Below, in pieces: positions 33,409-51,774 of a DNA stretch of 64,000 bases. The DNA lies in assembly GCA_029339505.1 (NCBI GenBank), contig JAQISU010000115.1:7372001-7436000 (forward strand), read 5' to 3'. The notes below the pieces were generated by a model. That model was not told where the DNA came from and made no database searches. It saw only the letters and a program-made list of their open reading frames with translations. The translations under genes and the position numbers were made by a program. The DNA is from Unio delphinus. Its lineage: Eukaryota; Mollusca; Bivalvia; Unionida; Unionidae. Position 1 is the first letter of the stretch; each line of letters starts with the position of its first letter.

Positions 33409-33424
33409 GGCCCTGAAAAGGGCC
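33409..33424 (-). terminator. Canonical histone mRNA-type 3' stem-loop (gene 1)
   Basis: The minus strand reads GGCCCTTTTCAGGGCC: a 6-bp stem with loop TTTC, identical to the animal replication-dependent histone consensus. It is preceded by CCAAA, followed by ACTCA, and 12 nt later by the purine-rich CTCGAAAAGATA. It lies 18 nt after the stop codon of the 33442-34026 gene. Confidence 0.9.
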
Positions 33425-33441
33425 TTTGGATACTTCTTCTT

Positions 33442-34026
33442 TTATTTTCTGCCTTTGTTCCACCACCTTTTGATTTTACCAATAATTCCCTTCTTCTTCT
33501 TTTCTTCCTCGGGAATCCAGTCAGGATGTCCCATAGCTCTAAACTTCTCTTGTATCTTTATCCAATTGTTATTTAATCTTTCAAAGTCCTCTTTCTTTTT
33601 TTGGTTTTCATTGTCCTTTCTTTCCTTTCTCTCCTTACTCCAGTTATCTTTTATCTTCTTCACTTCTTCTAATAGTTCCTTTCTCATCAGTTCTTCAGCT
33701 TTCTTGAGCGGGTCCAAACCCTTTTGGACATGGGGGTACTCTGTCAAGATATTATCCAAAAAACACTTGACGTTTTCGACAATATCTATCACTTGCTTCA
33801 ATGTCCCCACTCTAACATAGGGTGGATTAATGCAGCCTCGTAACTTTTTGGCTTCTTCTTCTAGCATTCCTCCTAAGAGCTCCCTGGCTATTTTCAGTCT
33901 TTTTGCAAAGTCCAAACTCTTCGTAATCTTCCATTTATGATGTAGTTTTTCCACTTCATATTCCCCGTCTAATATCCAGAAATAGCTGTGTCTTAAATTG
34001 TTGAATAAACTTGATGCTTTCGCCAT
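33442..34026 (-). CDS. Gene 1 of the array: charged coiled-coil protein with histone-type 3' end
   Basis: 194 residues, intact, no signal peptide. Residues 1-110 are mixed helical, and residues 115-165 are a Lys/Glu-rich coiled coil with EELMRKELLEEVKKIKDNW. The C-terminus ends in a basic cluster (KIKRWWNKGRK). The coiled-coil segment aligns with gene 8 (DLIEELFREEIQKEKDEW), so these two are paralogues. The ATG lies 33-41 nt below an initiator-like GTCAGTCAC and a TATATATA box. No homologue is recognised. The 3' end suggests a non-polyadenylated, S-phase-type mRNA. Single-exon structure fits a viral or histone-like gene. Confidence 0.75.
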   Translation of the reverse strand: MAKASSLFNNLRHSYFWILDGEYEVEKLHHKWKITKSLDFAKRLKIARELLGGMLEEEAKKLRGCINPPYVRVGTLKQVIDIVENVKCFLDNILTEYPHVQKGLDPLKKAEELMRKELLEEVKKIKDNWSKERKERKDNENQKKKEDFERLNNNWIKIQEKFRAMGHPDWIPEEEKKKKGIIGKIKRWWNKGRK

Positions 34027-34058
34027 CTTCTATGGTTATTCCGTGGAATGGTTCTAAT

Positions 34059-34114
34059 GTCAGTCACTTTGAGTATATATATCTTAAGCACGGACGTGAA
34101 AGTAAACACCCCCC
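34059..34114 (-). promoter_or_regulatory. Promoter of gene 1
   Basis: The minus strand has the upstream element containing TTTCACGTCC (34088-34114), a TATATATA box (34073-34082) and an initiator-like GTGACTGAC (34059-34067). The upstream element recurs at 51419, 51541 and 52243. Confidence 0.7.
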
Positions 34115-34148
34115 TACATTCACTTTTCATATTATATACTATCCACAA

Positions 34149-34540
34149 ACCATACTATATACTATCCAAAATCACACCCTATACTAACCACACACACACG
34201 GGGTAGCAGCCAAAACAAACCATACTATATACTATCCAAAATCACACCCTATACTAACCACACACACACGGGGTAGCAGCCAAAACAAACCATACTATAT
34301 ACTATCCAAAATCACACCCTATACTAACTACACACACACACACGGGGTAGCAGCCAAAACAAACCATACTATATACTATCCAAAATCACACCCTATACTA
34401 ACCACACACACGGGGTAGCAGCCAAAACACACCATACTATATACTATCCAAAATCACACCCTATACTAACCACACACACGGGGAAGCAGCCAAAACACAC
34501 CATACTATATACTATCCAAAATCACACCATATACCATCTA
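34149..34540. repeat. 70-bp tandem repeat, about 5.5 copies
   Basis: The unit begins ACCATACTATATACTATCC and includes a variable ACACACAC tract and GGGGTAGCAGCC. It fills the gap between the gene 1 promoter and the end of gene 2. Confidence 0.95.
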
Positions 34541-34625
34541 ATTAGAGTCAGTGTTTATAATCACTTTACTCCTCTCTCACACCCATTGGCAATTGACATA
34601 GTATTTCTTTTCTTGTTATTTGGGT

Positions 34626-34641
34626 AGCCCTGAGAAGGGCT
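34626..34641 (-). terminator. Histone mRNA-type 3' stem-loop (gene 2)
   Basis: The minus strand reads AGCCCTTCTCAGGGCT, a perfect 6-bp stem with loop TCTC. It is preceded by AAAAAC, followed by ACCCA and then CAAGAAAAGAAA, close to the sea-urchin histone downstream element CAAGAAAGA. It lies 28 nt past the stop codon of gene 2. Confidence 0.88.
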
Positions 34642-34668
34642 GTTTTTAAAACTTCAAATTACACCTGG

Positions 34669-35133
34669 CTAATGCTGGCATCTCCCAGGTCTAGCCCCAC
34701 ACACACATCTCCTACTCCAATCATTCTCCCAATTCACTCTTGTGATTGGGAGTGCAGAGGGAGAATGAGTGGCTTCACTATCCCAATCTTCTGTTTGAGG
34801 GATAGTGAAAGTCTCTTCATTTCTGCCTCTATTCCGCAACCGTGGATGAGGCTGTGGTTGTTGCGGCTGAGGCAGTGGGGGCTGCGCCTGTAGTGGACGA
34901 ACTGGTTCTGGTGAAGGTGTCCTCACTATAGGCTTGACTTCACTAGTTTGCCTCATCATGCGGTGAGGCAAAATTGACATTTTCATTTCCTTCTCCTCTT
35001 CTTTCTTTTTCCTCTCCTCCTCTTCTTTAATTCTGGTCTCTTCTTCTTCGGCCTCCATTGCCAGTTCGTCCAGGAGACGTCTAGCATTCTCCAGATGCAT
35101 TTGAAGTTCTCTTAATTTCTGTACTCTATTCAT
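34669..35133 (-). CDS. Gene 2 of the array: coiled-coil, proline-rich protein with histone-type 3' end
   Basis: 154 residues, intact. Residues 1-50 form a Glu/Lys-rich coiled coil (EEEETRIKEEEERKKKEEEK). Residues 65-95 are Pro/Gln-rich. The tail has a cysteine pair pattern CVCGARPGRC just before the end. The TATA box is at 35191-35196 and the initiator at 35160-35170, giving a leader of about 30 nt to this ATG. The stem-loop follows the stop. Function unknown; no histone fold is present. Confidence 0.7.
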   Translation of the reverse strand: MNRVQKLRELQMHLENARRLLDELAMEAEEEETRIKEEEERKKKEEEKEMKMSILPHRMMRQTSEVKPIVRTPSPEPVRPLQAQPPLPQPQQPQPHPRLRNRGRNEETFTIPQTEDWDSEATHSPSALPITRVNWENDWSRRCVCGARPGRCQH

Positions 35134-35159
35134 CTTTGGTGTTGATACGCCAACGATGG

Positions 35160-35200
35160 GTAGCCAGACTTACTTCTTCTTAATGAGTTTTTTATAGATA
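35160..35200 (-). promoter_or_regulatory. Promoter of gene 2
   Basis: TATAAAAAA-type box at 35191-35200 (minus) and the shared initiator block AGTCTGGCTAC at 35160-35170. Confidence 0.75.
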
Positions 35201-35203
35201 TAG

Positions 35204-35880
35204 CCGCCCACTAAGGGCATTTGTATATCTTTTATAGGTGCCATGTCGGCACCCATTTAGGTGGGAGGGGTTGTTAATACCTCCCTTAAAGTGCTTAAAT
35301 GCACTATAATTAAGGCGTTCCCCTGAATTACTAAAAAGTAACTATCAGGGGAAATGAAAGCCTATATTGGGGGTGGGTAGGAATGGTACCCACACACACC
35401 CACCCATAGCATCCAATCGAGTTGTAAATAAGGTAGCGAGGGGAAATGTTTCCTCATTTCGCTAGTAATTTTGGTGAGCGGAATCGGCAAAGGTGGAAAG
35501 GGTCCAGGTCCAGGAGGCGCGGGCGACACAGCAGCACACACAGGCCACGCAAAGAGACAGACAGCAAGGTGACGAACGCAGCATACACCTGAAACGAAAG
35601 AGCCCTACTTATTTCAAATTTAGTCCAGTTTTACTAATGGACAGACCTAAATTCCAATAATGTGTTAGCCACCTGTGCAATTATTCAAATATTAAAGTTG
35701 AAGAATTGTTATTTAACATCCTATTGTTCTAAAAATCTAGTACATAAGTGTACATAAATTAAGTCCCTAACAATTTAGAAAATTAAAATGTCTAAACGAC
35801 ATATAGTAGTGTAGTCAATGGTAGTTTGTTTTTAGTTATGAATTTTGCTGGAGGTACCAAAAATAAGTCATATTAGCTTT
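35204..35880 (-). repeat. Intergenic module A, copy 1
   Basis: About 680 bp, homologous to 38209-38895. It has three hairpins: 35318-35353 (TTCCCCTGA/TCAGGGGAA outer stem), 35371-35405 (GGGTGGGT/ACCCACCC) and 35434-35464 (TAGCGA/TCGCTA with an inner GGAAA/TTTCC stem). On the minus strand a polypyrimidine tract followed by CAG at about 35590 resembles a 3' splice site. It separates the 3' end of unit 3 from the promoter of gene 2. Confidence 0.75.
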
Positions 35881-35908
35881 TTAGGGCCACGGAATAGTTA
35901 TTCAAAGA

Positions 35909-35935
35909 GGGGTACTCGTAACCAAATGAGTCCCC
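35909..35935 (-). terminator. Conserved 3' hairpin II (unit 3)
   Basis: Minus strand GGGGACTC - loop ATTTGGTTAC - GAGTACCCC. The same structure ends units 5, 6 and 7, with paired base changes in the stem. Confidence 0.6.
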
Positions 35936-35967
35936 TATATTCAGGCAAGTGAAATGGCAATGTGAAG

Positions 35968-36192
35968 TCACATCTTGCTCCGCAGGCACTTCTTCGGGTG
36001 TAGTAGGTGGTGGTCACAGAGTTTCTCATGTGACCTCCTATCCCTGCCATTGTTGTATCTTCTACTTTGCTGTCCTCTTGGTTGTGGAAACGTTTTCGAC
36101 TTCGCATGGGTCCCCTCCACGTGCTTTGGCAGCCATCTTGGTTTTCCATGAAAAGGCATTTCTAGGTCAGCAACGTATCGATTATACAGCAT
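35968..36192 (-). CDS. Unit 3 of the array: possible short basic protein, doubtful
   Basis: A 74-residue Lys/Arg/His-rich frame that ends 33 nt before hairpin II, the position a stop has in neighbouring units. No domain is recognised. The leader from the promoter at 36408 would be about 215 nt. The first part of the transcript (CACATTCAGGCG and following) is homologous to units 5 and 7, but no long shared frame survives, so this may be a decayed paralogue or a non-coding transcript. Confidence 0.3.
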   Translation of the reverse strand: MLYNRYVADLEMPFHGKPRWLPKHVEGTHAKSKTFPQPRGQQSRRYNNGRDRRSHEKLCDHHLLHPKKCLRSKM

Positions 36193-36407
36193 TATATCTT
36201 CTAGTGGCTGGATATTTGAAGACTAATTGGTAGTGGAGCTTTACTCTACACTGCCGCTTCTACTACTCATATGGGTGTTTCTCTGTTATCACTCCTAATT
36301 GGTAGCTTTATCCATGCTATTATGCGTGCACGCATTTACACCAGGTAGTCCTGCCGTCCCGGTCCTGCCTGCTCCGTGTTCACCGCCTGAATGTGTAATG
36401 ATGAATG

Positions 36408-36443
36408 GTAGCCAGACTGACTGACTGACCTGGTTGTTTTATA
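36408..36443 (-). promoter_or_regulatory. Promoter of unit 3
   Basis: CTATAAAAC at 36436-36444 (minus) and the initiator block TCAGTCAGTCAGTCTGGCTAC-like at 36408-36428. Confidence 0.75.
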
Positions 36444-38009
36444 GCTGCAGCCGTCTACTAGAGACATATGTGCAGCTTTTATAGACACCATATCGGTGTC
36501 CATTTAGTTCCTTCGGGGAGGGGAAGGATGCACTCCCTCCCCTTAGGGTTTGAGTGCTTAATTGCACCACATTTCAGTCATTGTTAGGCGTTCCCCTGAA
36601 TTACTAAAAAGTAACTATCAAGGGAAATGATAGCCTATAGGGTGGATAGGACTGGCACTACACACATCCACCCCAATTTAGTTCCAATCGATACATCATT
36701 AAAGGTAGCAAGGAGAATTTTCTCACTTCGCTAGTAATGTCATGTCCGGAAGCGGCAAAGGCGGCAAGGTCCAGTTCAGGAAGCTCCAAGCTCCAAGGTA
36801 CTGCAATCGTCGTCCAGCACGAAGAGGGGGAGAACGCACACCCGGACCCCAATACGAAGAAACCCGAGGCACACCGTAGGTGCTTGGCTACTTTACAACC
36901 TCATAGGACATGTATCAGAGTGTATGTGCTATATAGTTGTGTTTTGCATTGTTTTGGTGTTATTTATTGTGTTACATTTATTTGCAACATTGTGTTGCGG
37001 GAGCCTGATAGTCCTGGATTAAGACTACCTTATATTAGCTAAGAGGGGCAGAAGTGTGTGTACGTATATGTGTGCTGTCCATGAGGCTGCATTCCCTTTG
37101 ACTCGGTTCAATTTATCCAGTTGTACTAGTGGAAGTTCCTACTCGCCAATAATGTGTTAGCCACCTATGCAATTATGTCAAAACTATATAAGTTACTGAA
37201 TTTTCCAAAACTTAACACTATATCAGTAAGTAAGTACCGAGTGTACTATATGAGTCGCCACCATCCTCCTTTGGCCGGCGAAAAACCCTTCTTTCGAGGG
37301 TAATTCACCCTATGAAAAAACAAAAAACCTATACTATGTCAAAGTGACTGCATCAGTTGTTCACGGTGGATTGTTCAAGGTTGTTAATTTGGTTAGGTGT
37401 GCTCCGAAAGGTTCAATTCAATATTGATGTTGGTTAATCAAATGGAATTCTCGTACCAATCGAGATTATGAGAATTCATCTTGTAATAACATATAACAGG
37501 AAGACGATACATAGTACAGAATGAGAAAGAGAAAAGGTTCAACATCAGTTTCCCTGAGAAATTAATTGAGTGGATACATACAGAGGTGTACTAGGCTGTA
37601 CACATATATATCTCCAGTCCAGGCTTGGAATACCCGCATCTCCACTGTTCCACTGATCTTCACCAAATCCCAAGGAATACAAAAAAGGGGGGGAATAGAT
37701 ATATCACATTGACAGTACAAGTACAACAATAACATTAAGAACACAAGTACAACAACACAATAACCTTAACAACACGAGTACAACAACACGGAACAGTTAT
37801 ATTAACAATGTTAGTAAACTATAAAAACACAAGGTCAGTAAAAACAGTAAAACAATATCTTTAGTATAACATAGTTGTATTAGTATAAATTTCAATAACA
37901 ATATTAGTGAACAATCACAATAACAATATTAATCATAACATATTAACAAAATTAGCATCAATACAAACTATACTAAGATTAAGAGAACAAGAACATAACA
38001 AGAATAAAA

Positions 38010-38025
38010 AGCCCTGAAAAGGACT
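38010..38025 (-). terminator. Histone-like 3' stem-loop, weakened (unit 4)
   Basis: Minus strand AGTCCTTTTCAGGGCT. The stem keeps 6 pairs if one G-T wobble is allowed. Unlike those of genes 1, 2 and 8 it is followed by T-rich sequence and lacks a purine-rich downstream element, so it is probably a decayed copy. Confidence 0.55.
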
Positions 38026-38160
38026 GTTGTATAATCCTATGAATCTGTAGTCCGTCCTCCACGTTTCCATTGTCGTCAAGGATAGCGCCATGAACTCCAT
38101 TGATATTCCTAAGCTGTCCATACTTTGTGTAAAGTTTCTATTATGCTTTTTGAATATCAA
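38011..38160 (-). pseudogene. Unit 4 of the array: very short, probably decayed
   Basis: Between its promoter (38172) and stem-loop (38010) only about 150 bp remain. An ATG at 38158-38160 opens a frame that runs straight through the stem-loop. A second frame without ATG reads a more protein-like stretch (GVHGAILDDNGNVEDGLQ). A homologous copy lies at 42970-43107. Probably a remnant of a longer gene. Confidence 0.35.
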
Positions 38161-38171
38161 GTGCCAATGAC

Positions 38172-38208
38172 GTAGCCAGACTGACTGACTGAGTTGAGTT
38201 GTTTATAG
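38172..38208 (-). promoter_or_regulatory. Promoter of unit 4
   Basis: Minus-strand CTATAAAC box at 38201-38208 and initiator block AGTCAGTCAGTCTGGCTAC at 38172-38190. Confidence 0.7.
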
Positions 38209-38895
38209 TTGCAACCACCCACTAGGGGTATTTGTGCAACTTTTATAGGTGCCATATCGGCACCCATTTAGGTGGGAGGGGTTGTTAATCCCTCCCTTAA
38301 AGTGCTTAAATGCACTATAAATTAAGGCGTTCCCCTGAATTACTAAAAAGTAACTATCAGGGGAAATGAAAGCCTATATTGGGGGTGGGTAGGAATGGTA
38401 CCTACACACACCCACCCCTATCATCCAATCGAGCTAGTAAGGTAGCGAGGGGAAATGTTTCCTCATTTCGCTAGTAATTTGGTGAGTCGGAAATGGCAAA
38501 GGCGGAAAAGGCCCAGGTCCAGGAGGGCGTTGACACAGCAGCACACACCAGAGCACGCCAACAGCAAGACAGCACAGCAAAGGACGCAGCCCACACCTGA
38601 AAAACCAAGGTCATACTAAAGGTCAAATTCAGTCCAGTTGTACTAATGGACAAATAAACATCCAATATTGTGTTAGCCACCTGTGCAATTATTCAAATAT
38701 TTAAGTTGAAGAATTATTATTTAAAGTCCTATCATTCAAATAAAACTAGTACATAAGCGTACATATAATAAGTCCCTAACAATTTTGAAACTTAAGTGTC
38801 TAAGCGACATATAATAGTGTAGTCAATGGTAGTTTGTTTTAGTTATGAATTTTGCTGGAGGTACCAATATAAGTCATATTAGATTTTTAGGGCCA
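38209..38895 (-). repeat. Intergenic module A, copy 2
   Basis: Close homologue of 35204-35880, including the hairpin at 38330-38365 and the GGTGGGT/ACCCACC pair near 38383-38417. Confidence 0.75.
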
Positions 38896-38914
38896 CGGAA
38901 TAGTTGTTCAAAAA

Positions 38915-38941
38915 GGGGTACTCGTAACCAAATGAGTCCCC
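38915..38941 (-). terminator. Conserved 3' hairpin II (unit 5)
   Basis: Same stem and ATTTGGTT loop as at 35909-35935. Confidence 0.6.
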
Positions 38942-39539: not shown

Positions 39540-39580
39540 GTAGCCAGACTGATTGATTGATTGATATTATGAGTTTTAAG
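39540..39580 (-). promoter_or_regulatory. Promoter of unit 5, weak TATA
   Basis: The initiator block is at 39540-39560, here with an ATCA-type repeat (CAATCAATCAATCAGTCTGGC). The TATA position holds CTTAAAAC at 39573-39580, a degenerate box. Confidence 0.6.
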
Positions 39581-40290: not shown

Positions 40291-40298
40291 AATCGAAG

Positions 40299-40327
40299 AG
40301 GGTTTCCCTCAGCCAAATGAGAACCCT
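40299..40327 (-). terminator. Conserved 3' hairpin II (gene 6)
   Basis: Minus strand AGGGTT...AACCCT stem with ATTTGGCTG loop, 32 nt past the stop of gene 6. The stem differs from those of units 3, 5 and 7 on both arms. Confidence 0.6.
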
Positions 40328-40358
40328 ATTAAAAATGGCAATGAAAGTAGCCCTAAGG

Positions 40359-41345: not shown

Positions 41346-41386
41346 GTTTTTCGAGTTGACCACTCTCTGCTCGTTCGCTGCTGACT

Positions 41387-41426
41387 GTAGCCAGACTGAC
41401 TGACTGACTGACTTGGTTGTTTTATA
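41387..41426 (-). promoter_or_regulatory. Promoter of gene 6
   Basis: CTATAAAAC box at 41419-41427 (minus) and initiator block with repeated TCAG (41387-41412) ending in TCTGGCTAC. Confidence 0.78.
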
Positions 41427-43115
41427 GCTGCAGCCGTCTACTAGAGACATATGTGCAGCTTTTATAGACACCATATCGGTGTCCATTTAGTTCCCTCAGG
41501 GAGGGGAAGGATGCACTCCCTCCCTTTAGGGTTTGAGTGCTTAATTGCACCATATTTCAGTCTTTGTTAGGCGTTCCCCTGAATTACTAAAAAGTAACTA
41601 TCAAGGGAAATGGTAGCCTATAGAGTGGATAGGACTGGTACTACACACATCCACCCCCAGTTAAGTTCCAATCGATGTATTATTAAAGGTAGCAAGGAGA
41701 ATTTTCTCGCTTCGCTAGTAATGTCATGTCCGGAAGCGGCAAAGGCGGAAAGGTCCAGTTTAGGATGCTCCAAGCTCCAAGGTACTGCAATCGTCGTCCA
41801 GCACGAAGAGGGGGCGAACGCACACCCGGACCCCAATACGAAGAAACAAGAGGCACACCTTAGGTGCTTGGCTACTTTACAACCTCATGGGACATGTATC
41901 AGAGTGTATGTGCTATAAAGTTGTGTTTTGTATTGTTTTGATGTTATTTATTGTGTAACATTTATTCGCAACATTGTGTTGCGGGAGCCTGATAGTCCTG
42001 GATTAAGACTACCTTATATTAACTAAGAGGGGCAGAAGTGTGTGTACGTATATGTGTGCTGTCCATGAGGCTGCATTCCCTATGACTCTATTCAATTATC
42101 CAGTTGTACTAGTGGAATTCCCTATTCGCCAATAATGTGTTAGCCACCTATGCAATTACGTCAAAACTATATGAGTTACTGAGTTTTGCAAAAACTTAAC
42201 ACTATATCAGCAATTAAGTACAGAATGTACTATATGAGTCGCCACCGTCCTGGTGAAAAGCCCTTCTTTCGAGGGTAATTCACCCTATGAAAAAACAAAA
42301 TACCTATACTATGTCAGAGTGACTGTATCAGTTGTTCACGATGGATTGTTAAAGTTGTTAATTTGGTAAGGTGTGCTCCGAAAGGATCAATTCAATATTG
42401 ATATTGGTTAATCAAATGGAATTCTCATACCAATCGAGATTATGAGAATTCATGTTGTGATAACATATAACAAGAAGACAATACATAGTACAGAGTGAGA
42501 AGGGAAAAGGTTCAACATCAGCTTCCCTGAGAAATTAATTGAGTGGATACATACAGAGGTGTACTAGGCTGTACACATATATTTCTCCAGTCCAGGCTTG
42601 GAATACCCGTATCTCCACTGTTCCACTGATCTTCACCAAATCCCAAAGAATACACAAAAAAAAGGGGGGAATAGATACATCACATTGACAATACAATACA
42701 ACAATGACATTAGTAACACGAGTATATTAACAATATTAGTAAGCTATAAAACTAAAGGTCAGTAAAAAGTAAATAACAGCATCTTTAATATAACATAATT
42801 GTATTAGTAAAAACAATTAAATACAATATTAGTAAACAATAAATATAACAATAACATGTTAACAAAATTATCATCAATACAAACTATACTAAGATTAGCA
42901 TCAACACAAACTATACTAATATTAAGAGAACAAAAACATAACAAAAATAAAATAGCCCTGAAAAGGACTGTTGTATAATCCTATGAATCTGTAGTCCGTC
43001 CTCCACGTTTTCATTGTCCTCAAGGATAGCGCCATGAACTCCATTGATATTCCTAAGCTGTCCACACTTTGTGTAAAGTTCTATTATACTTTAGAATATC
43101 AAGTGCCAATGACTT
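41427..43115 (-). repeat. Intergenic module B, copy 2
   Basis: Homologue of 36444-38175 with scattered substitutions and small indels. The hairpin is at 41574-41609. The right boundary is where the LINE begins. Confidence 0.75.
42954..42969 (-). terminator. Histone-like 3' stem-loop, weakened (unit 4 paralogue)
   Basis: Identical in sequence to the one at 38010-38025 and likewise lacks a purine-rich downstream element. The unit it ended has been split by the LINE from a promoter now at 50067. Confidence 0.5.
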
Positions 43116-43722: not shown

Positions 43723-46700
43723 TTATATTTTATGCATTAGATTTGAGTTTGTAATAAAATCCATAATATAAGTAACAGTCATTTGCATATTAGGTTGATT
43801 TAGATCAAGAAGTTTTGGATATAATTTAGTTGATTTACTTATTTTCAATTTATTTTTAAGGATATTTCTATATGTGATGTTTTTAAGACATTTATTAAAT
43901 ATATGATCCAAATCTTCCACTTGATTACACATAAAACAGTTAATATTGTGTGGAAATGGTCCTAAATATTTTCCAAAACTGTTAGCCAGTTTTGTTTTTC
44001 CTACCATTAGCCTATTCATTTTAATTTGCTGAGTTCTTGTCTTACCTATAGGAGTAACTTTCCTTTTAACTGTTTTCATAATGTTATAAAGTACTCTCCC
44101 TTTTATTGAGTTATTCCAGTTATTTTGCCACATATTATTTATCATATCAGTAATAAATTTATATATCTCTGTATGGCTGTAAGGAACCTGTTCTTGTGTC
44201 AATTCATTTAGTTTTTCTTTTGCTATTTGATCTGCCAAATCATTTCCTTTTATATCTATATGTGATGGCACCCATAGAAAGTCTATTTCAATATCTTGAA
44301 TGCTAAGTTTGCTTATTTGATACTGAATTAAATATAGGAAAAATTTTCTGCTGTTAGAGTTGTTTGTGCTAATTGTTTTTAGAACACTTAATGAATCACT
44401 AACAATAAGAAATTTTTTTGAGGTTAATTTAGAGTGTTGTATCCATTTTAATGCCTGAAGTATAGCCCAGAACTCAACAGTGTATATGGAGCAGTAATCA
44501 GGTAGTCGCATTCCTTGTTTAACAGTGAACTCAGGAACAACCCATGATGCTGCCGTTCTTGCAGGGTCCAGTTTTTTAGACCCATCCGTATATATTTTGA
44601 CATAATTTTTATATTCATTATTTAGCTTTTCATTGGCAAGCATTTTAAGATAATGGGAGTCCTGTAATTTAATTCCTTTATCTTGTAAAGTGGTGTCTAC
44701 TTTTATTGTTTTTAATCTCCATGGAATTATAATGGGATTTTTAGTTTGCTGTACATTAAATATATCAGTTGGCAAATTTGTTTTAAGACGGAGAATTTGT
44801 TTGCCAAATGAAGTGGAGTATTTGCCCCGTTTAATGAGTGGTTTAGTACATTTTTTAATTGCCTTTAAAGTAGGGTGCTCATCATTTTGGGTTGACAGTC
44901 TAGCTACATATCTTAACATGATTTCCTGTCTTCTGAGATGTAATGATGGTTCGCCAGTAAGAATTTGTAATTCTTCTGTGGAAGTAGATGGTAGTGCTTT
45001 AGTTGCAAGGAGAAGGGCTTTACGCTGAATTGAGGTAATTTTATTTAGTAAAGCTGGCGATGCTGTGGCATAAACATGACACCCATAATCAATCTTTGAA
45101 CGTATCAAAGATCTATATAGGGTCATTATTGTATTTTGACAAGCACCCCAATGTGTGCCTTGGATACTTCTAATTAGATTTAGATCAAGGTTACATCTAC
45201 TAATTAAGTAATTAATATGGTATTTCCATTTCATGTTTTGATCAAAATACATCCCTAGAAATTTAACTACTTTTACAAAAACTATATTTTGATTTTGGAG
45301 AGTAAGTTTAGGATATATTTTATTATAGTTAAAGGGAGAGAATACAACTGCGACTGTTTTTGTATGTGAAAATTTAAATCCCCATTTATCAGCCCAACTA
45401 CCAATATTGTCTAAGGTTTGTTGTATCTCAGCAATATGTTTTTGATTATTGGGATCTCCAGCGCGCCATAGTGCACTATCATCCGCAAACTGAGATAGGT
45501 CAATATTGGAGGTAGCTAGATTTGTATCTAGATCATTAATCATGATGTTAAATAAGGTGGGGCTGAGTACGCTCCCTTGGGGTGTACCATTATCTAATAC
45601 ATACTTTTCAGAGTATGTTGTTCCTACTCTAGTTATAATTTTACGTTCAGTTAGAAAATCTTTGATAAAATTAAATATATTACCGGTTATACCATATTTG
45701 TTTAATTTAGTTAGTAGACCTTTAGTCCATACTAAGTCAAAAGCTTTTTCCATGTCTAAGAATACAGCAATGAGGTTTCTATTTTTTTTTTGATGATTAT
45801 TAAAAGCTAATTTAATTGCTGTTTCTAATTTAATAAGTTGATCTATAGTAGATCTATTATTTCTAAAACCACATTGATTCTTGGATATGAAATTGTTGAT
45901 TTCTAGGTGATATTTAAGTCTATTATTTATTATTATTTCCATTATTTTACATATATTATTGGTAAGAGAGATAGGACGATATGAATTTACATCATTCCTA
46001 TCTTTGTTTTGTTTTAATATTGGTACTACTATTGCTGTTTTCCATTTAATAGGTAGTTTTCCTGTCTCCCAAATTTGATTATACATATCAAGTATTATCT
46101 TAACAAATTTAAGTGGTAACTTCTTATATACTGAATATCCTATGGTATCTTCTCCAGGTGATGTATCTTTTTTGGTTTTAAGAGCTTGATACCATTCATT
46201 AATTGTAATTTTATCATTTAGATAGGACTTTTTAGTTCCCATATCTGAGAATGTATTTTTATTATTTATTTCAATTTTAGATCTATGTTCCTGAAATTCC
46301 TTAGTGTGATTTTTATTACTACTCATATCTTGGAAGTGCTTTGCTAATGAGTCAGCTTGCTCTTTGTGATTATTGGTATTATTTATTTTTGGAGTATTGT
46401 TAGTATGCTTACCCCTTATTATTCTAATTTTGTCCCAGACTTGTTTTGAGTTTGTTTTATAATCAAAGGTACTGCAATATTGTCTCCAAGTATCTTGCTT
46501 AGCTTTTTTAATAACATTTTTAAGTTCAGTTTCTATTTTTTGATATTCTTTAAAATGCTGTGTATTATTAGTACGTTTAAATTTATTAAGTGCTTTACGT
46601 TTATTTTTCCTCATTACACTAATGTCATTATTCCACCAAGGGACTCTAAGTTTAGTGGGATTACCTTTTGTTTTAGGTATTGAGGCATTAGCTGCCCTTG

Positions 46701-47598
46701 TTATAGCATTAATTATGTTATCATAGTAATGATCTATATTTTCCTTTTTAATGCCCTCAAGTGTTTCATATTTAATATTTTGTTGAAACTTATTCCAATC
46801 TGCTTTTTGGTAGTTCCATTTTGGGATTTTATTATCAATTTGCAGTTGAGCAGAATTTTGTAATTTGGTTATTATAAGAAAATGATCACTGCCCATACTA
46901 TCTTCTTGATCAACACTCCAAGATGCTAATTGAGCAAGTTTGGGAGTACATAGTGTGAGATCTAAGGCTGCTAAAGTGCCATCTGCCGGATTAAGTCTTG
47001 TTTTAGTACCATCATTGAGTAATACAAGTTTCGTTTTATTAATCCAATTTTGTACTCTTTTACCTCTATTATTTGTTGATTCACTTCCCCATGTAACATT
47101 GTAAGAATTAAAATCACCTAACACCATAGCTTCATTTTGTCCTATATGCAGTTTAAGCGCTTTCAATGCTAATTTATGAGTTAGTGCAATATCATGTCCA
47201 GGATCATAAAAGTTATATAAAATAAATTTAAACTTGCCTGTATTAATTTGCAAAGCTTGTACCTCTATTGCAGAATTATTAATTGCTTGTAGATTAATTG
47301 GGACTATTGTTGCAGAGGGTATGTTATTATTAAGATATATAACAAGTCCCCCTCCCTGACCCTCATTCCTATGTTGAAAAAATCCAGGTGAATATCCTAC
47401 AATTGTCGGTAATGTTTTAGTTTTATTTGTTATTTTAGTTTCCTGAATACAGATTAGATCTGGTTTTATTAAAGTATTAATTAGTTTTAATTTTAATTCA
47501 TTAATATTAATAACTAGACTACGCGAATTCCATTGCCATATGGTTAAATTTGTGGTATTAGAGTGAGAGTTGGTTACTACTTTTGTTGTATTATTCAT
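43723..47598 (-). CDS. LINE ORF2: endonuclease-reverse transcriptase-RNase H
   Basis: An intact 1,291-residue protein. The N-terminal apurinic-like endonuclease (1-240) has WNSRSL, a QETK motif, GDFN and SDH. The reverse transcriptase (about 480-760) has YRPISLTN, GFRNNRSTIDQL, a DMEKAFD block, GTPQGSVLSP and the catalytic FADD. An RNase H domain (about 1010-1135) has YTDGSK, a catalytic Glu in YTVEFWAI, SDS, and a final WVPSHIDIKGNDLAD. A C-terminal CxxC...H...C knuckle (CFMCNQVEDLDHIFNKC) is near residue 1220. RNase H plus an APE domain points to the I superfamily (I/Nimb-like). Its ATG overlaps the end of ORF1 by 8 nt (ATGAATAA), suggesting termination-reinitiation. Lack of any break implies recent insertion. 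Confidence 0.95.
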   Translation of the reverse strand: MNNTTKVVTNSHSNTTNLTIWQWNSRSLVININELKLKLINTLIKPDLICIQETKITNKTKTLPTIVGYSPGFFQHRNEGQGGGLVIYLNNNIPSATIVPINLQAINNSAIEVQALQINTGKFKFILYNFYDPGHDIALTHKLALKALKLHIGQNEAMVLGDFNSYNVTWGSESTNNRGKRVQNWINKTKLVLLNDGTKTRLNPADGTLAALDLTLCTPKLAQLASWSVDQEDSMGSDHFLIITKLQNSAQLQIDNKIPKWNYQKADWNKFQQNIKYETLEGIKKENIDHYYDNIINAITRAANASIPKTKGNPTKLRVPWWNNDISVMRKNKRKALNKFKRTNNTQHFKEYQKIETELKNVIKKAKQDTWRQYCSTFDYKTNSKQVWDKIRIIRGKHTNNTPKINNTNNHKEQADSLAKHFQDMSSNKNHTKEFQEHRSKIEINNKNTFSDMGTKKSYLNDKITINEWYQALKTKKDTSPGEDTIGYSVYKKLPLKFVKIILDMYNQIWETGKLPIKWKTAIVVPILKQNKDRNDVNSYRPISLTNNICKIMEIIINNRLKYHLEINNFISKNQCGFRNNRSTIDQLIKLETAIKLAFNNHQKKNRNLIAVFLDMEKAFDLVWTKGLLTKLNKYGITGNIFNFIKDFLTERKIITRVGTTYSEKYVLDNGTPQGSVLSPTLFNIMINDLDTNLATSNIDLSQFADDSALWRAGDPNNQKHIAEIQQTLDNIGSWADKWGFKFSHTKTVAVVFSPFNYNKIYPKLTLQNQNIVFVKVVKFLGMYFDQNMKWKYHINYLISRCNLDLNLIRSIQGTHWGACQNTIMTLYRSLIRSKIDYGCHVYATASPALLNKITSIQRKALLLATKALPSTSTEELQILTGEPSLHLRRQEIMLRYVARLSTQNDEHPTLKAIKKCTKPLIKRGKYSTSFGKQILRLKTNLPTDIFNVQQTKNPIIIPWRLKTIKVDTTLQDKGIKLQDSHYLKMLANEKLNNEYKNYVKIYTDGSKKLDPARTAASWVVPEFTVKQGMRLPDYCSIYTVEFWAILQALKWIQHSKLTSKKFLIVSDSLSVLKTISTNNSNSRKFFLYLIQYQISKLSIQDIEIDFLWVPSHIDIKGNDLADQIAKEKLNELTQEQVPYSHTEIYKFITDMINNMWQNNWNNSIKGRVLYNIMKTVKRKVTPIGKTRTQQIKMNRLMVGKTKLANSFGKYLGPFPHNINCFMCNQVEDLDHIFNKCLKNITYRNILKNKLKISKSTKLYPKLLDLNQPNMQMTVTYIMDFITNSNLMHKI

Positions 47599-49621
47599 GT
47601 TGGTTTAATAACTTTCCTGATTTTATACCCTCCTCTACGTGTTGGATAAGGACATGGAGCCCGTTCGTGAGGGTAGATAAATAACTACTGTTTTTGTTTT
47701 GTGCGTTACTAATGTAACGACCTATTTGAGAAATAGCTAGGCCTATTGTATTTAGACCCAGATTATCTGTAAGGTCTATAGAATTTTCTGTTTGAGTTTG
47801 GCTATTAGAGGTTGTTTTATTAGTAACCTCTGTTATTTCTATAGTTTTGCCAATGACAGTTGATGTTGGAGTAGGAGTTGTCTTTTCCTGTTTTTTTGGA
47901 TTTTTGGTATTTTGGTTTTGAAGATTTATTATATTTCTTGCTGTGATATAATCATAATTAGACGAGTTCATAAGGGTTATGACCTCGTTTTCAAAAATAG
48001 CAGCACTACATTTTATAGAGCTAGAGGGATGGTCTTCCTTACAATTACCACATTTAGGTTGTTCTCTTTTACACTGTCCTGTATGTGGTCCACCACAGTT
48101 TTCGCATCTATGTTTAAAGGTACAAGCGACCTTATAGTGACCCCAATGCTGGCAATTTGTACAGAATCTTACTTTATTCACAAATGACTGAGTTTTATGA
48201 TATATTCCCGGAGATCCTACTTTGATTATTGCTGGTATTGGTGTTGTTGATTCAACAACCATCACAGTTTGATCTGTAGCTTTTTGATTTTTACCTATTT
48301 TGTAGATTTTAGTAACTTGATTTCCTCCTTGTGTGATTTTGTCTTTGATTTGTTGAGTGGTGCATGTTGCCATTTGGCCCTTTAATTTCATTACTGCCTT
48401 GTATTTTATTGGGTGGGTTTGTTGTTGTTGTTGTTGTTGTTTTTGCTGTTTGATTTCTCTTTGTTGTTGTTGTTGTTGTTGTTGTTCCTGTTGTTTAATT
48501 TCACTTTGCTGTTGCACTTTATTTACTTTTGGACTTTTATTGTTATTGTTATTGTGATTGTTGATTTTGTTGTTGTTGTTGTTGATTTTGGTAACTTGAG
48601 ATGTTTTAGCTTTTTTGTGCAGCTCCATAATTACTGGCATGCCGCAAAGTTTATTTATTTCCAAGAATTTTGCAACTTGAGCACGTGTGCTGCAATGCAA
48701 AATTATGTAATTTGTTTTAGGGCGTACAATTTTGCATTGCCCTGAATGAACCTTCAGTAATGCCTTAGCAATACTGATGGTTGTGATATCAAATATTGTG
48801 CTTGTTTTGCCCTTTAGAAACACTGTCATATCCACGTTATGATAGTGTTTATTTATTTTTGTGTAATGTGAGCTGACTTGTTTTTTGTTTTCAGTTTTTG
48901 AAGAGTTTTTAGCAGGTCTTTGATATTTGGGGTTTAGCGCCTGTTTCCCCTTTCCTTGGTAAGCGGGGGGGGAGTTTTCTATATGTTGTACCGTTTTAGC
49001 TGTTTTGCTCTCTCTATTACTTGCAGATGTTTCTGGTATTTGGCTACTATGGTACAATGTAGCTTTGTCTGCTTGGATTTGACCTACTTTCCTACCAGTT
49101 TTAAGTATTTGGGCGTAGGTAAATTTTGCCTGTGTTAATTTAGTTCCGGTCTGCACAGTTTTACCCTCTATCATTTGTGTACAGCCGAGTGGTGTGGTAG
49201 TACTTTTGGCCTTATCAGATTTAGTCCCTACCTTTTGTATGGACTGAGTTTTGTCCGAGTTAGCGGAATGGGGGGTTGGTGTGTCAGAAGGCAAAGTATC
49301 GTCTAGGTTTTGAGTGGTTGAAACCTCAATGATTTTAATACCTACTGGTTTGTTTTTCTTGGTAGTGGTGTTTGTTTCATTAGCAAAATTGTCCCCTAGA
49401 TTAAATCTAACGGGAGATAGGGGATTTAACTTGTCTGCCTGCTCTTTTCTTAGGCGATATTCAGGCGATTTTAAAAAGTTTAACTGTTTGATTTGGACAG
49501 GTCTCTTACTTGCCTGAGGCGTGAGGTCAATAACACCCATTTTTGTTGCCAAATTTGTTTGAATAGGCTTTGCAAGCCCACATTTGACCAAAGCTGCGAG
49601 TCTTACGTTATCTCTGTGCAT
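47591..49621 (-). CDS. LINE ORF1: gag-like nucleic-acid-binding protein with three zinc knuckles
   Basis: An intact 676-residue protein. The N-terminal 240 residues are low-complexity and Lys/Thr-rich. An RRM-like region lies around 260-340. A long Asn/Gln tract (about residues 345-410, with runs of up to eight or nine Gln) precedes a second globular part. Three CCHC-type knuckles follow: CTNCQHWGHYKVAC, CENCGGPHTGQC and CGNCKEDHPSSSIKC. This protein coats LINE RNA in the ribonucleoprotein particle. The + strand across the Gln tract shows a spurious Cys-rich frame. Confidence 0.92.
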   Translation of the reverse strand: MHRDNVRLAALVKCGLAKPIQTNLATKMGVIDLTPQASKRPVQIKQLNFLKSPEYRLRKEQADKLNPLSPVRFNLGDNFANETNTTTKKNKPVGIKIIEVSTTQNLDDTLPSDTPTPHSANSDKTQSIQKVGTKSDKAKSTTTPLGCTQMIEGKTVQTGTKLTQAKFTYAQILKTGRKVGQIQADKATLYHSSQIPETSASNRESKTAKTVQHIENSPPAYQGKGKQALNPKYQRPAKNSSKTENKKQVSSHYTKINKHYHNVDMTVFLKGKTSTIFDITTISIAKALLKVHSGQCKIVRPKTNYIILHCSTRAQVAKFLEINKLCGMPVIMELHKKAKTSQVTKINNNNNKINNHNNNNNKSPKVNKVQQQSEIKQQEQQQQQQQQREIKQQKQQQQQQQTHPIKYKAVMKLKGQMATCTTQQIKDKITQGGNQVTKIYKIGKNQKATDQTVMVVESTTPIPAIIKVGSPGIYHKTQSFVNKVRFCTNCQHWGHYKVACTFKHRCENCGGPHTGQCKREQPKCGNCKEDHPSSSIKCSAAIFENEVITLMNSSNYDYITARNIINLQNQNTKNPKKQEKTTPTPTSTVIGKTIEITEVTNKTTSNSQTQTENSIDLTDNLGLNTIGLAISQIGRYISNAQNKNSSYLSTLTNGLHVLIQHVEEGIKSGKLLNQHE

Positions 49622-50066
49622 TTTATACGGTGTTGGTGAAGAGTTGAAGGATTTAGGTTCTAATATTTATGAATTTAAAGTACTTGTAATGAAGATGAAT
49701 TAAATAATATTTAATATTTATGATTTATGATAAACTGAGTTATAGATTAACTGTAGTAGTCTGTGTTTAAATATTAGTTGTTAGGGTTTTGTTAAGAAAC
49801 TAAGTCAGCGGCACTCAATTTGAACCCGTAGGTTTAACAATTTACCTTAATTCGATGTGTAGCTTAATAGAATATCCTGATAACAAATCTGTATCCTCCT
49901 TGGAAAGCTGGTTACTTGACTTGTGGAAGATATGGTACTCGCTATCCGGGATTCACTGTGAAACCGTGGCTGCCGAAAACAGGTAACAGGTTACTATAAA
50001 GCTTGAGTGAGAGATTTTCTGAGTGCTGCGACAAACACGTCTGTACAGTACAGAGCGGCGAGTGCC

Positions 50067-50104
50067 GTAGCCAGACTGATTGATTGATATGATAGGTTTA
50101 AAGT
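50067..50104 (-). promoter_or_regulatory. Array promoter stranded next to the LINE
   Basis: Initiator block at 50067-50087 with CAATCAATCAGTCTGGC and a weak TTTAAAC box at 50095-50102. The gene it drove is separated from its 3' end (42954) by the LINE. Confidence 0.6.
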
Positions 50105-50815
50105 GAATCGTCCACTTGGGCTCTTTTCACTGTTTTATCCCTCAAAGGAGGGTTATTTACTTTATCCTGAGGGGAAGGAATCGTGCCACATCCCCTGCAG
50201 GCATTTATGCACTCATAGAGTGCTATTTACTTAGGCCATCACCACTGGGCAATACATGTACTGCCTCTGGGTGTGACTTCGGCCGTCACCACGGGCAATA
50301 ATTGTACTGCCTGGGTGAATGTAAGGCCATAAGCCATAGGCCATAGGGTGGGTAGGAATGGAACCTACTCACACCCACCCCTATCATTCTGTTACCTACC
50401 GATCTGCAAGAGCAGTGAAGCGAGAGAAAATTAGTTTTCTCATATCGCTTATGTCGGCGTAATGTGGTCGTGCAAGCACGAGAAATTACGGCAGCAGGGA
50501 GTAAAGGTGATGAAAAGCAAAGCGCGCACCTGTATATCAAATTCAGTCCAGTTATACTAATGGACAGCCTAACAACCAATAATGTGTAAGCCACCTGTGC
50601 AATTTACCAAATATCTAAGTTATAAAAAATATTAATTAACATCCTATGGAAAATAGGGACTAGTACTATAGTGTACATATGAAGTCCCTATTGTATTTAA
50701 GCTAAAGTGTCTAAGCGACACATAAAAGTGTAGTCAATGGTAGGGGAGTTTGGTTATAAATTTGTGTCGCAGTGCCAAAAAATGTCATATTAGTTCTTTC
50801 AGGGCCAAATAGTTT
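50105..50815 (-). repeat. Intergenic module C, copy 2
   Basis: Homologue of 39581-40290 with the same hairpins and GGGCAATA inverted repeats. Substitutions are few. Confidence 0.78.
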
Positions 50816-50822
50816 GTCAAAG

Positions 50823-50849
50823 AGGGTACTCGAAGCCAAATGAGTCCCT
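50823..50849 (-). terminator. Conserved 3' hairpin II (unit 7)
   Basis: Minus strand AGGGACTC - ATTTGGCTTC - GAGTACCCT, 6 nt past the stop codon of the 50855-51340 frame. Confidence 0.6.
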
Positions 50850-50854
50850 ATTAT

Positions 50855-51340
50855 TCAAGTAACGATAACAATGGCTATATACATCACTCCATCTGTCTCT
50901 CCGTGTGGTCCGGTGGTAAAGTTACTGCGTGTTGTAGGAGGTGATAGCTCTGCCGTAGTTTTTCCTTCCAGTCCAGGCACGGCCACAACACAAGTTTGGG
51001 ACTTATGCGCCTTTCTTGTCCAGTCAAAGATGGCCGCCATGGCTTCCAGTTTTCCCGCCATTTGGTCCCTGCCGCAGACAAGTCCGGGAGTTACGAGATG
51101 CAAATGGTGGTCTATTCTGTAGTCTTCACCTCTGTTCAACCCGCAGTTTTCTTTTCTGTAGTTGTGACGGGATAATGTCATAATATTCGTCCTTAGCAAA
51201 GCCCGGGATATCATCATGCCGTGAACAACACGTGGCACCTTGCTAAGCGCCAGGTAAACCCAAACCACGCTGTTCCAACACTCCCATTGTGACATCACCA
51301 GGTCACCAGCTCCAGAAAAGCCGTCCAGCTCGGTCCGCAA
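50855..51340 (-). CDS. Unit 7 of the array: 161-residue protein of unknown function
   Basis: The frame starts 34 nt below the initiator and ends just before hairpin II, so its limits fit the transcription unit. No domain was recognised. It has no coiled coil, and a hydrophobic tail (DGVMYIAIVIVT) might be a membrane anchor or chance. Its first 20 residues are shared in broken form by unit 5. Coding status is only moderately supported. Confidence 0.4.
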   Translation of the reverse strand: MRTELDGFSGAGDLVMSQWECWNSVVWVYLALSKVPRVVHGMMISRALLRTNIMTLSRHNYRKENCGLNRGEDYRIDHHLHLVTPGLVCGRDQMAGKLEAMAAIFDWTRKAHKSQTCVVAVPGLEGKTTAELSPPTTRSNFTTGPHGETDGVMYIAIVIVT

Positions 51341-51373
51341 CCGCTACTTGAATGTCGTATGGTATGTATGATG

Positions 51374-51443
51374 GTAGCCAGACTGAGACTGACGAGTGCT
51401 TTTTTATATATAGCACAAGCGCGGACGTGATGGAAAACACCCC
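51374..51443 (-). promoter_or_regulatory. Promoter of unit 7
   Basis: Upstream element with CATCACGTCCGCGC (51419-51443), TATATATAAAAA box (51401-51412), then the initiator block TCAGTCTCAGTCTGGCTAC (51374-51393). Confidence 0.8.
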
Positions 51444-51478
51444 CTAGATCCAAAAACTTACATTATCCCTATCATTAC

Positions 51479-51479
<1 letters not shown>

Positions 51480-51515
<36 letters not shown>
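51480..51515. repeat. Poly(A) tract of about 35 nt
   Basis: An uninterrupted A run followed by degenerate ACAAAAC repeats. It lies between two copies of the CACGTCC-type upstream element (51419 and 51541). Confidence 0.95.
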
Positions 51516-51516
<1 letters not shown>

Positions 51517-51540
51517 AAAACACAAAACAAAACACAAAAC

Positions 51541-51578
51541 ACGCGGACTTAAAAGAAAACACCCCACACTTTTATACT
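51541..51578 (-). promoter_or_regulatory. Orphan promoter fragment
   Basis: A fourth copy of the upstream element (GGGGTGTTTTCTTTTAAGTCC on the minus strand, here with AAGTCC instead of CACGTCC). It has no convincing initiator or gene attached, and is probably a remnant of a lost unit. Confidence 0.4.
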
Positions 51579-51758
51579 TGACTCATAATAATTATACATT
51601 TAACAAGTTATTTTGAAAAAAAATACGCTGTGCTTATAGACGCACTTCAAAATAAAAGTAAAATGAGATAGTGATTATAGACTCACTTCTATCTTTTTCT
51701 AACTTCCTCACATACCATGAGCAAATTGAATGATTAATTCTTTTCGAGAATATTGGGT

Positions 51759-51774
51759 AGCCCTGAAAAGGGCT
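51759..51774 (-). terminator. Canonical histone mRNA-type 3' stem-loop (gene 8)
   Basis: Minus strand AGCCCTTTTCAGGGCT, a 6-bp stem with loop TTTC, preceded by AAAAAAC and followed by ACCCA and then CTCGAAAAGAAT. It lies 35 nt past the stop of gene 8. This is the best complete match in the window. Confidence 0.92.

What the first reader, a model, noticed from the sequence alone, without database searches (positions are those of the whole stretch)
33409..51774. Virus-like non-histone genes end in bona fide replication-dependent histone 3' stem-loops
Seen directly: three minus-strand genes (33442-34026, 34669-35133, 51809-52174) have a 16-nt stem-loop 18-35 nt past the stop codon (33409, 34626, 51759), with 6-bp stem and UUUC or UCUC loop. 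Each is followed by ACCCA or ACTCA and then CTCGAAAAGA or CAAGAAAAGA. Known: this combination (SLBP site plus U7 snRNA-binding downstream element) normally defines only metazoan replication-dependent histone mRNAs. The proteins are coiled-coil, not histone. Inference: an integrated adintovirus-type element couples accessory gene expression to S phase, avoids polyadenylation, or competes for SLBP. Two weakened copies (38010, 42954) show the signal was part of an expanding gene family. I know of no described virus or transposon with such an array.
Basis: partly seen in the sequence, partly recalled or inferred. Interest (0 to 1): 0.94.

Follow-up and report, generated by a model that had tools for sequence, protein, structure and literature searches.

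The report
Virus-like Polinton with histone-type gene ends
In a probably molluscan genome, a roughly 20-kb virus-like DNA element (a Polinton) carries the stem-loop and downstream signal of histone messages after five short non-histone genes, and about two thousand copies of this signal lie in the genome, which would likely let the element make messages without poly(A) tails that are tied to the host's DNA-replication phase.

Summary
RF00032 finds all three stem-loops on the coding strand, two above the curated cut-off and one 0.8 bits below. Each has a downstream element 13 nt past the stem; the host's five histone genes have 13-14 nt. The carrier is a Polinton: 6-bp target duplication, AG...CT ends, inverted repeats, PolB, chromodomain integrase, packaging ATPase, double-jelly-roll capsid. 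The window cuts it; the rest (L040) adds two more stem-loop genes, so five genes end this way and both inverted repeats hold an outward-facing signal. The genome has 2,057 exact matches to the terminal signal (reversed control 0); outward-facing pairs about 20 kb apart are common among the 100 places listed. Copies chosen by protein keep an intact stem in 22 of 24 cases; stems show paired changes; two genes tested are under purifying selection. The two 'weakened copies' lie in a 16-kb insert absent from seven other copies and lack the downstream element. Not shown: any RNA evidence, a host U7 snRNA, or the signal elsewhere (none in six partial MAG contigs with a related capsid gene). S-phase coupling is inferred.

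The parts
33090..33427 (.). left terminal inverted repeat of the Polinton; outer end AGTAGTAATAGG, flanked by 6-bp target duplication CATGAT (33084-33089); partner is L040 5605-5942 (window coordinate 69605-69942)
   Evidence: BLAST 98% over 351 nt, inverted; ends and duplication read; a related copy of the host repeat without the element is in L020
33442..34026 (-). gene 1, 194 aa, helical in the model; no known family
   Evidence: Pfam none above cut-off; model pLDDT 78.9, no PDB fold match at E<=0.001; dN/dS 0.13-0.29 against a paralogous family
33385..33429 (-). histone-type stem-loop (33409-33424) plus downstream element CTCGAAAAGA of gene 1, at the inner edge of the left inverted repeat
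   Evidence: RF00032 34.9 bits
34669..35133 (-). gene 2, 154 aa, charged/proline-rich
34602..34646 (-). histone-type stem-loop (34626-34641) plus downstream element CAAGAAAAGA of gene 2
   Evidence: RF00032 33.2 bits, just under the cut-off of 34; same score in 7 of 7 other copies L002-L008 with model R1
51733..51779 (-). histone-type stem-loop (51759-51774) plus downstream element CTCGAAAAGA of gene 3
   Evidence: RF00032 34.9 bits
35174..51385 (.). about 16.2-kb insert in this copy, holding a non-LTR retrotransposon and duplicated leader/3'-end modules
   Evidence: 7 of 7 other copies (L002-L008) run from 35173 straight to 51386
37989..38030 (-). stem relic without downstream element (weak copy 38010-38025)
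   Evidence: 17.9 bits with model R1; sequence
42932..42974 (-). stem relic without downstream element (weak copy 42954-42969)
   Evidence: 22.3 bits with model R1; sequence
52498..53055 (-). possible adenain-like cysteine protease; AATAAA 95 nt after its stop
   Evidence: Peptidase_C5 E 0.0054, below cut-off
53596..54936 (-). double-jelly-roll major capsid protein
   Evidence: AF2 pLDDT 83.6; Foldseek to PBCV-1, iridovirus, mavirus and Sputnik capsid proteins, best E 8e-16; homologues in bivalves
56763..57875 (-). rve integrase with C-terminal chromodomain
   Evidence: Pfam rve 1.7e-12, Chromo 1.1e-7
60732..61463 (-). A32/FtsK-like packaging ATPase
   Evidence: Pox_A32 5.3e-7, above its cut-off
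62809..63474 (-). BIR (inhibitor-of-apoptosis) domain protein
   Evidence: Pfam BIR 1.5e-23
63509..64000 (-). 3' end of the B-family DNA polymerase gene, which continues in L040 1-3594
   Evidence: DNA_pol_B_2 1.2e-41 on the L040 piece; stop in frame at 63509-63511

Best explanation
This is a high-copy Polinton (virus-like DNA transposon) whose five short accessory genes each end in a host-type histone mRNA 3' signal, stem-loop plus downstream element, so their messages are likely cut by the host's SLBP/U7 machinery instead of being polyadenylated. Shown: the signals, their spacing, their place after the stop codons, their presence in both terminal repeats facing outward, and their persistence in diverged families of this genome. 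Inferred: SLBP binds the stem-loop, the U7 particle pairs with the downstream element, CPSF73 cuts between them, and the message leaves the nucleus without a poly(A) tail. Inferred further: because SLBP rises for S phase and such messages decay at its end, the accessory proteins would be made when host and element DNA replicate. The outward-facing signals in the terminal repeats would also end transcription before it leaves the element. The other genes of the element lack the signal; whether they form a poly(A)-dependent class is open (AATAAA follows 2 of 15 of them within 250 nt).
For: RF00032 hits on the coding strand after three genes in the window and two in L040 (the two L040 hits score 32.5 and 29.8, below the cut-off of 34). 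Stem-to-GAAAA spacing is 13, 13, 13, 14, 13 nt in genes 1-5 and 14, 14, 13, 13, 13 nt in the host's H2A, H1, H3, H4 and H2B genes, which lie in a 6.8-kb tandem unit. The host has two SLBP exon matches, 59.5 and 38.5 bits, the second with one stop in the stretch. The genome has 2,057 exact matches to the terminal signal and 154 to the gene-2/3 type, with 0 reversed controls in both. Among the 100 places listed of the 2,057, neighbours 10-40 kb apart are outward-facing in 24 pairs (median 19.9 kb), inward in 3, tandem in 0. Of gene-1 copies picked by protein only, 10 of 10 from a family about 60% identical match RF00032 at E<=3.3e-6 (1 of 10 above 34 bits), and 12 of 14 further copies have an intact stem. 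Four of 6 stem pairs show changes on both sides, in 12 of 186 cells; slid structures show 0-2 such pairs. dN/dS is 0.13-0.29 for gene 1 and 0.24-0.27 for gene 5. No AWTAAA lies within 250 nt after genes 2-5. Background from passages of PMC12775136 and PMC7614891.
Against: No RNA evidence. No U7 snRNA was found: RF00066 gave nothing, but neither did it in the 14 controls; pattern searches gave little more than their reversed controls (42 v 38, 71 v 55); the one attractive candidate (L072) ranks 9th of 22 distinct candidates for pairing with the host's histone elements and has a weak hairpin. AATAAA overlaps the stop codon of gene 1, so poly(A) addition there is not excluded, and 11 of 15 other genes of the element also lack AWTAAA within 250 nt, so its absence after genes 2-5 says little. 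In 25 gene-1 3' ends the stem-loop (0.977 mean column identity) and downstream element (0.985) are not clearly set off from the next 20 nt (0.962), and inverted repeats can be homogenised for other reasons. The alignment behind the pair counts was fitted to the structure, and one of its five measures was reached by 25 of 500 shuffles. Six partial contigs with a related capsid gene show no signal.
Confidence: 0.74

Rival explanations
1. The hairpin is a DNA-level feature of the inverted repeats (a site for integrase, terminal protein or replication), and its likeness to histone ends is secondary.
For: Two of the five signals lie at the inner edge of the inverted repeats, and related families keep it there.
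Against: Genes 2, 3 and 4 carry it outside the repeats, on the coding strand after the stop. The separate downstream element with host-histone spacing is not explained.
Confidence: 0.1
2. The element captured a host histone 3' end and carries it along without using it.
For: Host histone ends look alike, and one capture could have spread by duplication.
Against: Copies chosen by protein keep it in 22 of 24 cases. Stems differ by paired changes (G-C to A-U at the first pair in 9 of 32 distinct rows). The five element signals differ from each of the five host histone ends read here.
Confidence: 0.07
3. The signals mainly titrate SLBP or the U7 particle (a sponge that disturbs host histone supply) rather than regulate the element's own genes.
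For: About two thousand exact signals in the genome could load the factor if transcribed.
Against: The signals are placed one per short gene, 17-34 nt after the stop codon; a sponge would not need genes. Expression is unknown.
Confidence: 0.06
4. The terminal signals act mainly as compact terminators that stop transcription inside the inverted repeats; cell-cycle control is incidental.
For: Both terminal signals face outward, as do most close neighbour pairs in the listed part of the genome matches (24 of 27).
Against: Internal genes 2, 3 and 4 carry it too. This rival shares the processing step with the main reading and differs only in the benefit.
Confidence: 0.15

Closest known systems
Metazoan replication-dependent histone mRNA 3' end (Rfam RF00032, SLBP/U7 pathway)
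   Same: 6-bp stem, 4-nt loop, A-rich 5' flank, ACCCA-like 3' flank, purine-rich downstream element at 13-14 nt, as in the host's own five histone genes
   Different: Attached to non-histone genes of a mobile virus-like element. The first pair is A-U in genes 2 and 3, and no host U7 was found to test pairing.
Polinton/Maverick elements
   Same: 6-bp target duplication, AG...CT ends, inverted repeats, PolB, rve integrase, packaging ATPase, double-jelly-roll capsid; bivalve homologues of the capsid protein
   Different: Histone-type 3' ends on accessory genes and inside the inverted repeats; not seen in six partial MAG contigs with a related capsid gene
Adintoviruses (definition seen in passages of PMC11071296)
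   Same: Integrase with C-terminal chromodomain
   Different: N-terminal OTU-like domain of PolB not detected by Pfam; hexon likeness by BLAST not tested
Viral capture of histone genes (e.g. bracovirus histone H4; recalled, not looked up)
   Same: A virus-like element taking a histone-linked part from its host
   Different: There the coding gene is captured; here only the 3' regulatory signal appears, on unrelated genes

Membership tests
Replication-dependent histone 3' end (RF00032) | stem-loop scoring as the family | tested here: met
   2 of 3 window sites above the gathering score, the third 0.8 bits below; the two L040 sites at 29.8 and 32.5 are below it
Replication-dependent histone 3' end (RF00032) | purine-rich downstream element at host spacing | tested here: met
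   5 of 5 element genes at 13-14 nt, host 5 of 5 at 13-14 nt
Replication-dependent histone 3' end (RF00032) | pairing with the host U7 snRNA | tested here: inconclusive
   no U7 gene identified
Replication-dependent histone 3' end (RF00032) | cleaved, non-polyadenylated mRNA, S-phase-linked | not testable with these tools
   no RNA reads available
Replication-dependent histone 3' end (RF00032) | follows a histone gene | tested here: not met
   the five proteins match no histone family in Pfam
Polinton/Maverick | terminal inverted repeats, AG...CT ends, 6-bp target duplication | tested here: met
   related host repeat without the element, L020
Polinton/Maverick | B-family DNA polymerase of the organellar/viral type | tested here: met
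   DNA_pol_B_2 1.2e-41
Polinton/Maverick | retroviral-type integrase | tested here: met
   rve 1.7e-12
Polinton/Maverick | double-jelly-roll major capsid protein | tested here: met
   Foldseek E 8e-16 to PBCV-1, 3e-14 to mavirus
Polinton/Maverick | packaging ATPase and adenain-like protease | tested here: inconclusive
   ATPase above cut-off; protease E 0.0054, below cut-off
Adintovirus | integrase with C-terminal chromodomain | tested here: met
   Chromo 1.1e-7
Adintovirus | PolB with N-terminal OTU-like domain | tested here: inconclusive
   no Pfam OTU match on the L040 piece; not searched by structure
Adintovirus | hexon recognisable by BLASTP against reference adintoviruses | not tested
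   no reference hexon compared by sequence

The most novel reading that the evidence does not exclude
A whole lineage of virus-like DNA transposons has taken over the histone mRNA 3'-end pathway as its own gene-expression programme: accessory genes fire as non-polyadenylated, S-phase-limited messages while capsid genes use poly(A), and outward histone ends in the terminal repeats insulate every copy. This would be the first non-histone gene set known (to these searches and my recall) to run on the SLBP/U7 system, with about two thousand signals in one genome.
Probability: 0.5. Interest if true: 0.94.

Novelty: new variant of a known kind. Interest (0 to 1): 0.87.

Why it matters
The histone stem-loop pathway is described as serving replication-dependent histone mRNAs (PMC7614891 and PMC12775136, passages seen). 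A high-copy selfish element that attaches these signals to unrelated genes would show that the pathway can be hijacked, would give DNA viruses and transposons a direct way to sense S phase, and would make it testable whether anything beyond the two cis elements is needed to make a message histone-like. It also warns that poly(A)-selected RNA-seq could miss these genes and that RF00032 hits cannot be taken as proof of histone genes: 37 of 39 loci examined outside the tandem histone cluster match this element's ends.

Tried and rejected
Host histone gene or pseudogene at the site: no histone family match among the 24 proteins of the window and L040 scanned, and of the 30 best genome-wide RF00032 loci none has a core-histone motif nearby (one loose H1 pentapeptide in L037, and one 25-aa H2B-like stretch in L017). 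Chance hairpins: made unlikely by the E-values and by the reversed-pattern controls. Two weakened copies as part of an active array: rejected. U7 snRNA: RF00066 and two Sm-site patterns; I looked at 22 fetched stretches, scored 22 distinct strings, ran Rfam on L072 (nothing) and fetched 11 more stretches (10 of the 71 places, one of the 42). None has a convincing U7 hairpin; the best of the 11, chosen over sliding windows, is -9.1 kcal/mol in L116. Relatives in IMG/VR: none for the capsid protein, its alignment, gene 1, the PolB piece or the signal pattern. Fold of gene 1: no PDB match at E<=0.001. Capsid protein against PDB sequences: only weak ribonuclease matches, taken as chance. Host by mitochondrial COX1: the two contigs with matches look like a ciliate mitochondrion and an actinobacterium, judged from memory, so contaminants. 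Host by histone H1: the best match (99%) is unnamed, the best named is Mytilus coruscus (68% over 37% of the query), and further named ones include oysters, an abalone, a chiton and a limpet, hence 'probably mollusc'.

Papers: searches combined histone stem-loop, SLBP, histone mRNA or histone downstream element with virus, adintovirus, Polinton or transposon terms. They held 1, 14, 4, 0, 12 and 89 papers, of which 1, 13, 4, 0, 12 and 12 were listed; no listed title or start of abstract describes such signals in a mobile element. Searches were on Polintons alone. Beyond listings I saw only passages of PMC7614891, PMC12775136, PMC10294476 and PMC11071296. The last mentions a histone-like viral protein in adomaviruses but no histone 3' end in the passages shown. 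The claim of novelty rests on these searches and on recall.
Full report
OBSERVATION. RF00032 scores 34.9 (51733-51779), 34.9 (33385-33429) and 33.2 bits (34602-34646); the curated cut-off is 34. A 16-nt pattern with up to 3 mismatches found 8 places in the window, the three signals and two weak copies among them, against 0.84 expected; 0 of 100 shuffles had as many. The downstream core GAAAA begins 13 nt after each stem. The proteins have no histone match; Pfam gives nothing above a cut-off.

WHAT CARRIES THEM. The window ends inside the element. The right neighbour (L040, C123:7436001-7446000) holds a 98% identical inverted repeat. The element runs from window 33090 to L040 5942, 36,853 bp, with ends 5'-AGTAGTAATAGG...CT-3' and the 6-bp duplication CATGAT on both sides. 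A related copy of the host repeat without the element, with a single similar hexamer (CATGAC), is in L020. Genes: PolB, integrase with chromodomain, A32-type ATPase, BIR protein and a weak adenain-like protease match, and a double-jelly-roll capsid protein (AF2 pLDDT 83.6). That makes it a Polinton/Maverick. In the 120 listed of 1,248 capsid homologues, those named with a species are bivalve proteins ('F54H12.2-like'), apart from one from a symbiont MAG. Seven of seven other copies (L002-L008) lack 16.2 kb between 35173 and 51386, which here hold a non-LTR retrotransposon and duplicated modules. Without that insert the element is about 20.6 kb.

FIVE GENES, NOT THREE. L040 adds gene 4 (4481-5128, minus) with a stem-loop at 4407-4452, and gene 5 (5347-5580, plus, 77 aa) with a stem-loop at 5603-5647 at the inner edge of the right inverted repeat. 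RF00032 scores them 29.8 and 32.5, below the cut-off. The own model R1 scores them 62.7 and 66.8, but they were among its nine building sequences. Both inverted repeats therefore carry an outward-facing signal. Gene 5 has homologues next to the signal in diverged copies (e.g. L018, L021), though those loci had been picked by the signal.

HOST COMPARISON. The host has a tandem histone unit, 6,817 bp apart, with H2A, H1, H3, H4 and H2B, each followed by a stem-loop and downstream element. RF00032 above the cut-off finds all but the H4 one in L039, which R1 finds with 49.0 bits. Stem-to-GAAAA spacing is 13-14 nt in 5 of 5 host genes and 5 of 5 element genes. SLBP is encoded (two exon matches, one stop in the second). 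U7 was not found: RF00066 gave nothing, nor did any of 14 control genomes ring, and two patterns gave counts near the reversed controls (42 v 38; 71 v 55). One candidate, L072, pairs well with genes 1, 3 and 4 and poorly with gene 2, but ranks 9th of 22 for the host's histone elements and has a weak hairpin. That test is inconclusive.

CONSERVATION. The terminal signal pattern (stem, loop, ACTCATA and CTCGAAAAG) occurs 2,057 times in the genome, its reversed control 0 times; the gene-2/3 type 154 times, control 0. In the 100 places listed of the 2,057, neighbours 10-40 kb apart are outward-facing in 24 pairs (median 19.9 kb), inward in 3 and tandem in 0. Ten P0006-family copies, taken from that list by protein only, all match RF00032 (30.9-34.9 bits, 1 of 10 above 34). 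Of 14 further copies that I picked for diversity from the 150 hits of a P0010 search, 12 have an intact stem; L090 and L094 are damaged. The RF00032 search of the genome scored 75 of 434,796 candidates and listed 74, 69 over the cut-off; one of 14 control genomes rang below the cut-off. In 39 loci covering such hits outside the tandem histone cluster, 37 match the element's ends over at least 150 nt, and 15 of 39, one of them not an element locus, show a further stem-loop at E<=0.1, many of them degenerate; those further sites were not used for choosing the loci. On 36 matches from 21 chosen sources (32 distinct), 97.3% of cells pair, 4 of 6 pairs have changes on both sides, and slid structures give 0-2 such pairs. 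Of the five measures four are reached by at most 2 of 500 shuffles, the count of further pair types by 25. That alignment was fitted to the structure, so the counts lean towards it. The second pair is G-C in 30 of 31 rows with letters; that this G is critical for SLBP is recalled. dN/dS is 0.29 (NG86) or 0.13 (YN00) for gene 1 against a P0006-family copy (187 codons), and 0.24-0.27 for gene 5 against L021 (76 codons).

AGAINST. Across 25 gene-1 3' ends the stem-loop (0.977) and downstream element (0.985) barely exceed the next 20 nt (0.962); the stretch before them has 0.89 and the one 64-104 nt on 0.73. Local conservation alone does not single them out. AATAAA overlaps the gene-1 stop codon; genes 2-5 have no AWTAAA within 250 nt. 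Of 15 other genes of the element, AATAAA follows the protease gene (95 nt) and the 61556 gene (11 nt), ATTAAA lies 185 nt after the capsid gene and overlaps the stop of the 54964 gene, and 11 have none, so a separate poly(A) class is only a suggestion. Six contigs in MAG records with a related capsid gene (26-45% identity; two from a tubeworm symbiont, one from a mussel symbiont, three from other MAGs) have no match: R1 on 6 of 6, RF00032 on 5 of 6, L107 left out for size. They are partial and may lack element ends; only their capsid match was tested. Thirteen gene-1 homologues exist in public protein collections, some probably from other species (P0010 has at best 57% identity here), but their 3' ends could not be read.

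MECHANISM. Passages of PMC12775136 and PMC7614891 state that SLBP binds the stem-loop, U7 pairs with the downstream element, the histone complex with CPSF73 cuts, SLBP rises for S phase, and the messages decay at its end. Applying this to the element is inference. I hold histone-type processing of these five genes as likely (0.74) and the full S-phase programme as about even.

Noticed in passing
28-8799: Genes of a second, different Polinton-like element at the left of the window: an integrase-like protein (rve 3.7e-7, below its cut-off), an AAA_19 match just below its cut-off and a protein with the P-loop-like stretch GPSGSGKT (8125-8799); no RF00032 hit there.
   Followed up: partly
43723-49621: Non-LTR retrotransposon with endonuclease, reverse transcriptase and RNase H domains, inside the 16-kb insert of this Polinton copy.
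   Followed up: partly
35159, 36407, 51373: The 12-mer GGTAGCCAGACT recurs beside both borders of the insert and once inside it, in leader regions of stem-loop genes; the insert may have arisen by recombination between duplicated leaders.
   Followed up: no
L040 4481-5580: Genes 4 and 5 are divergent and share a 218-bp intergenic stretch with several CCAAT-like and TATA-like motifs (seen by eye), recalling divergent histone gene pairs.
   Followed up: no
62809-63474: A BIR (inhibitor-of-apoptosis) domain protein in the element.
   Followed up: no
L086 (C871), L075 (C445): Assembly contaminants: COX1 on C871 looks like a ciliate mitochondrion, on C445 like an actinobacterium (judged from memory).
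   Followed up: partly
L017 1501-1550 and 1583-1631: RF00032 locus without a long match to the element; a 25-aa H2B-like stretch suggests a histone pseudogene.
   Followed up: no
A protein deposited in a public collection on a 0.9-kb contig (P0006) is present in at least 150 near-identical copies in this genome, so the source sample probably held this host or a close relative.
   Followed up: no
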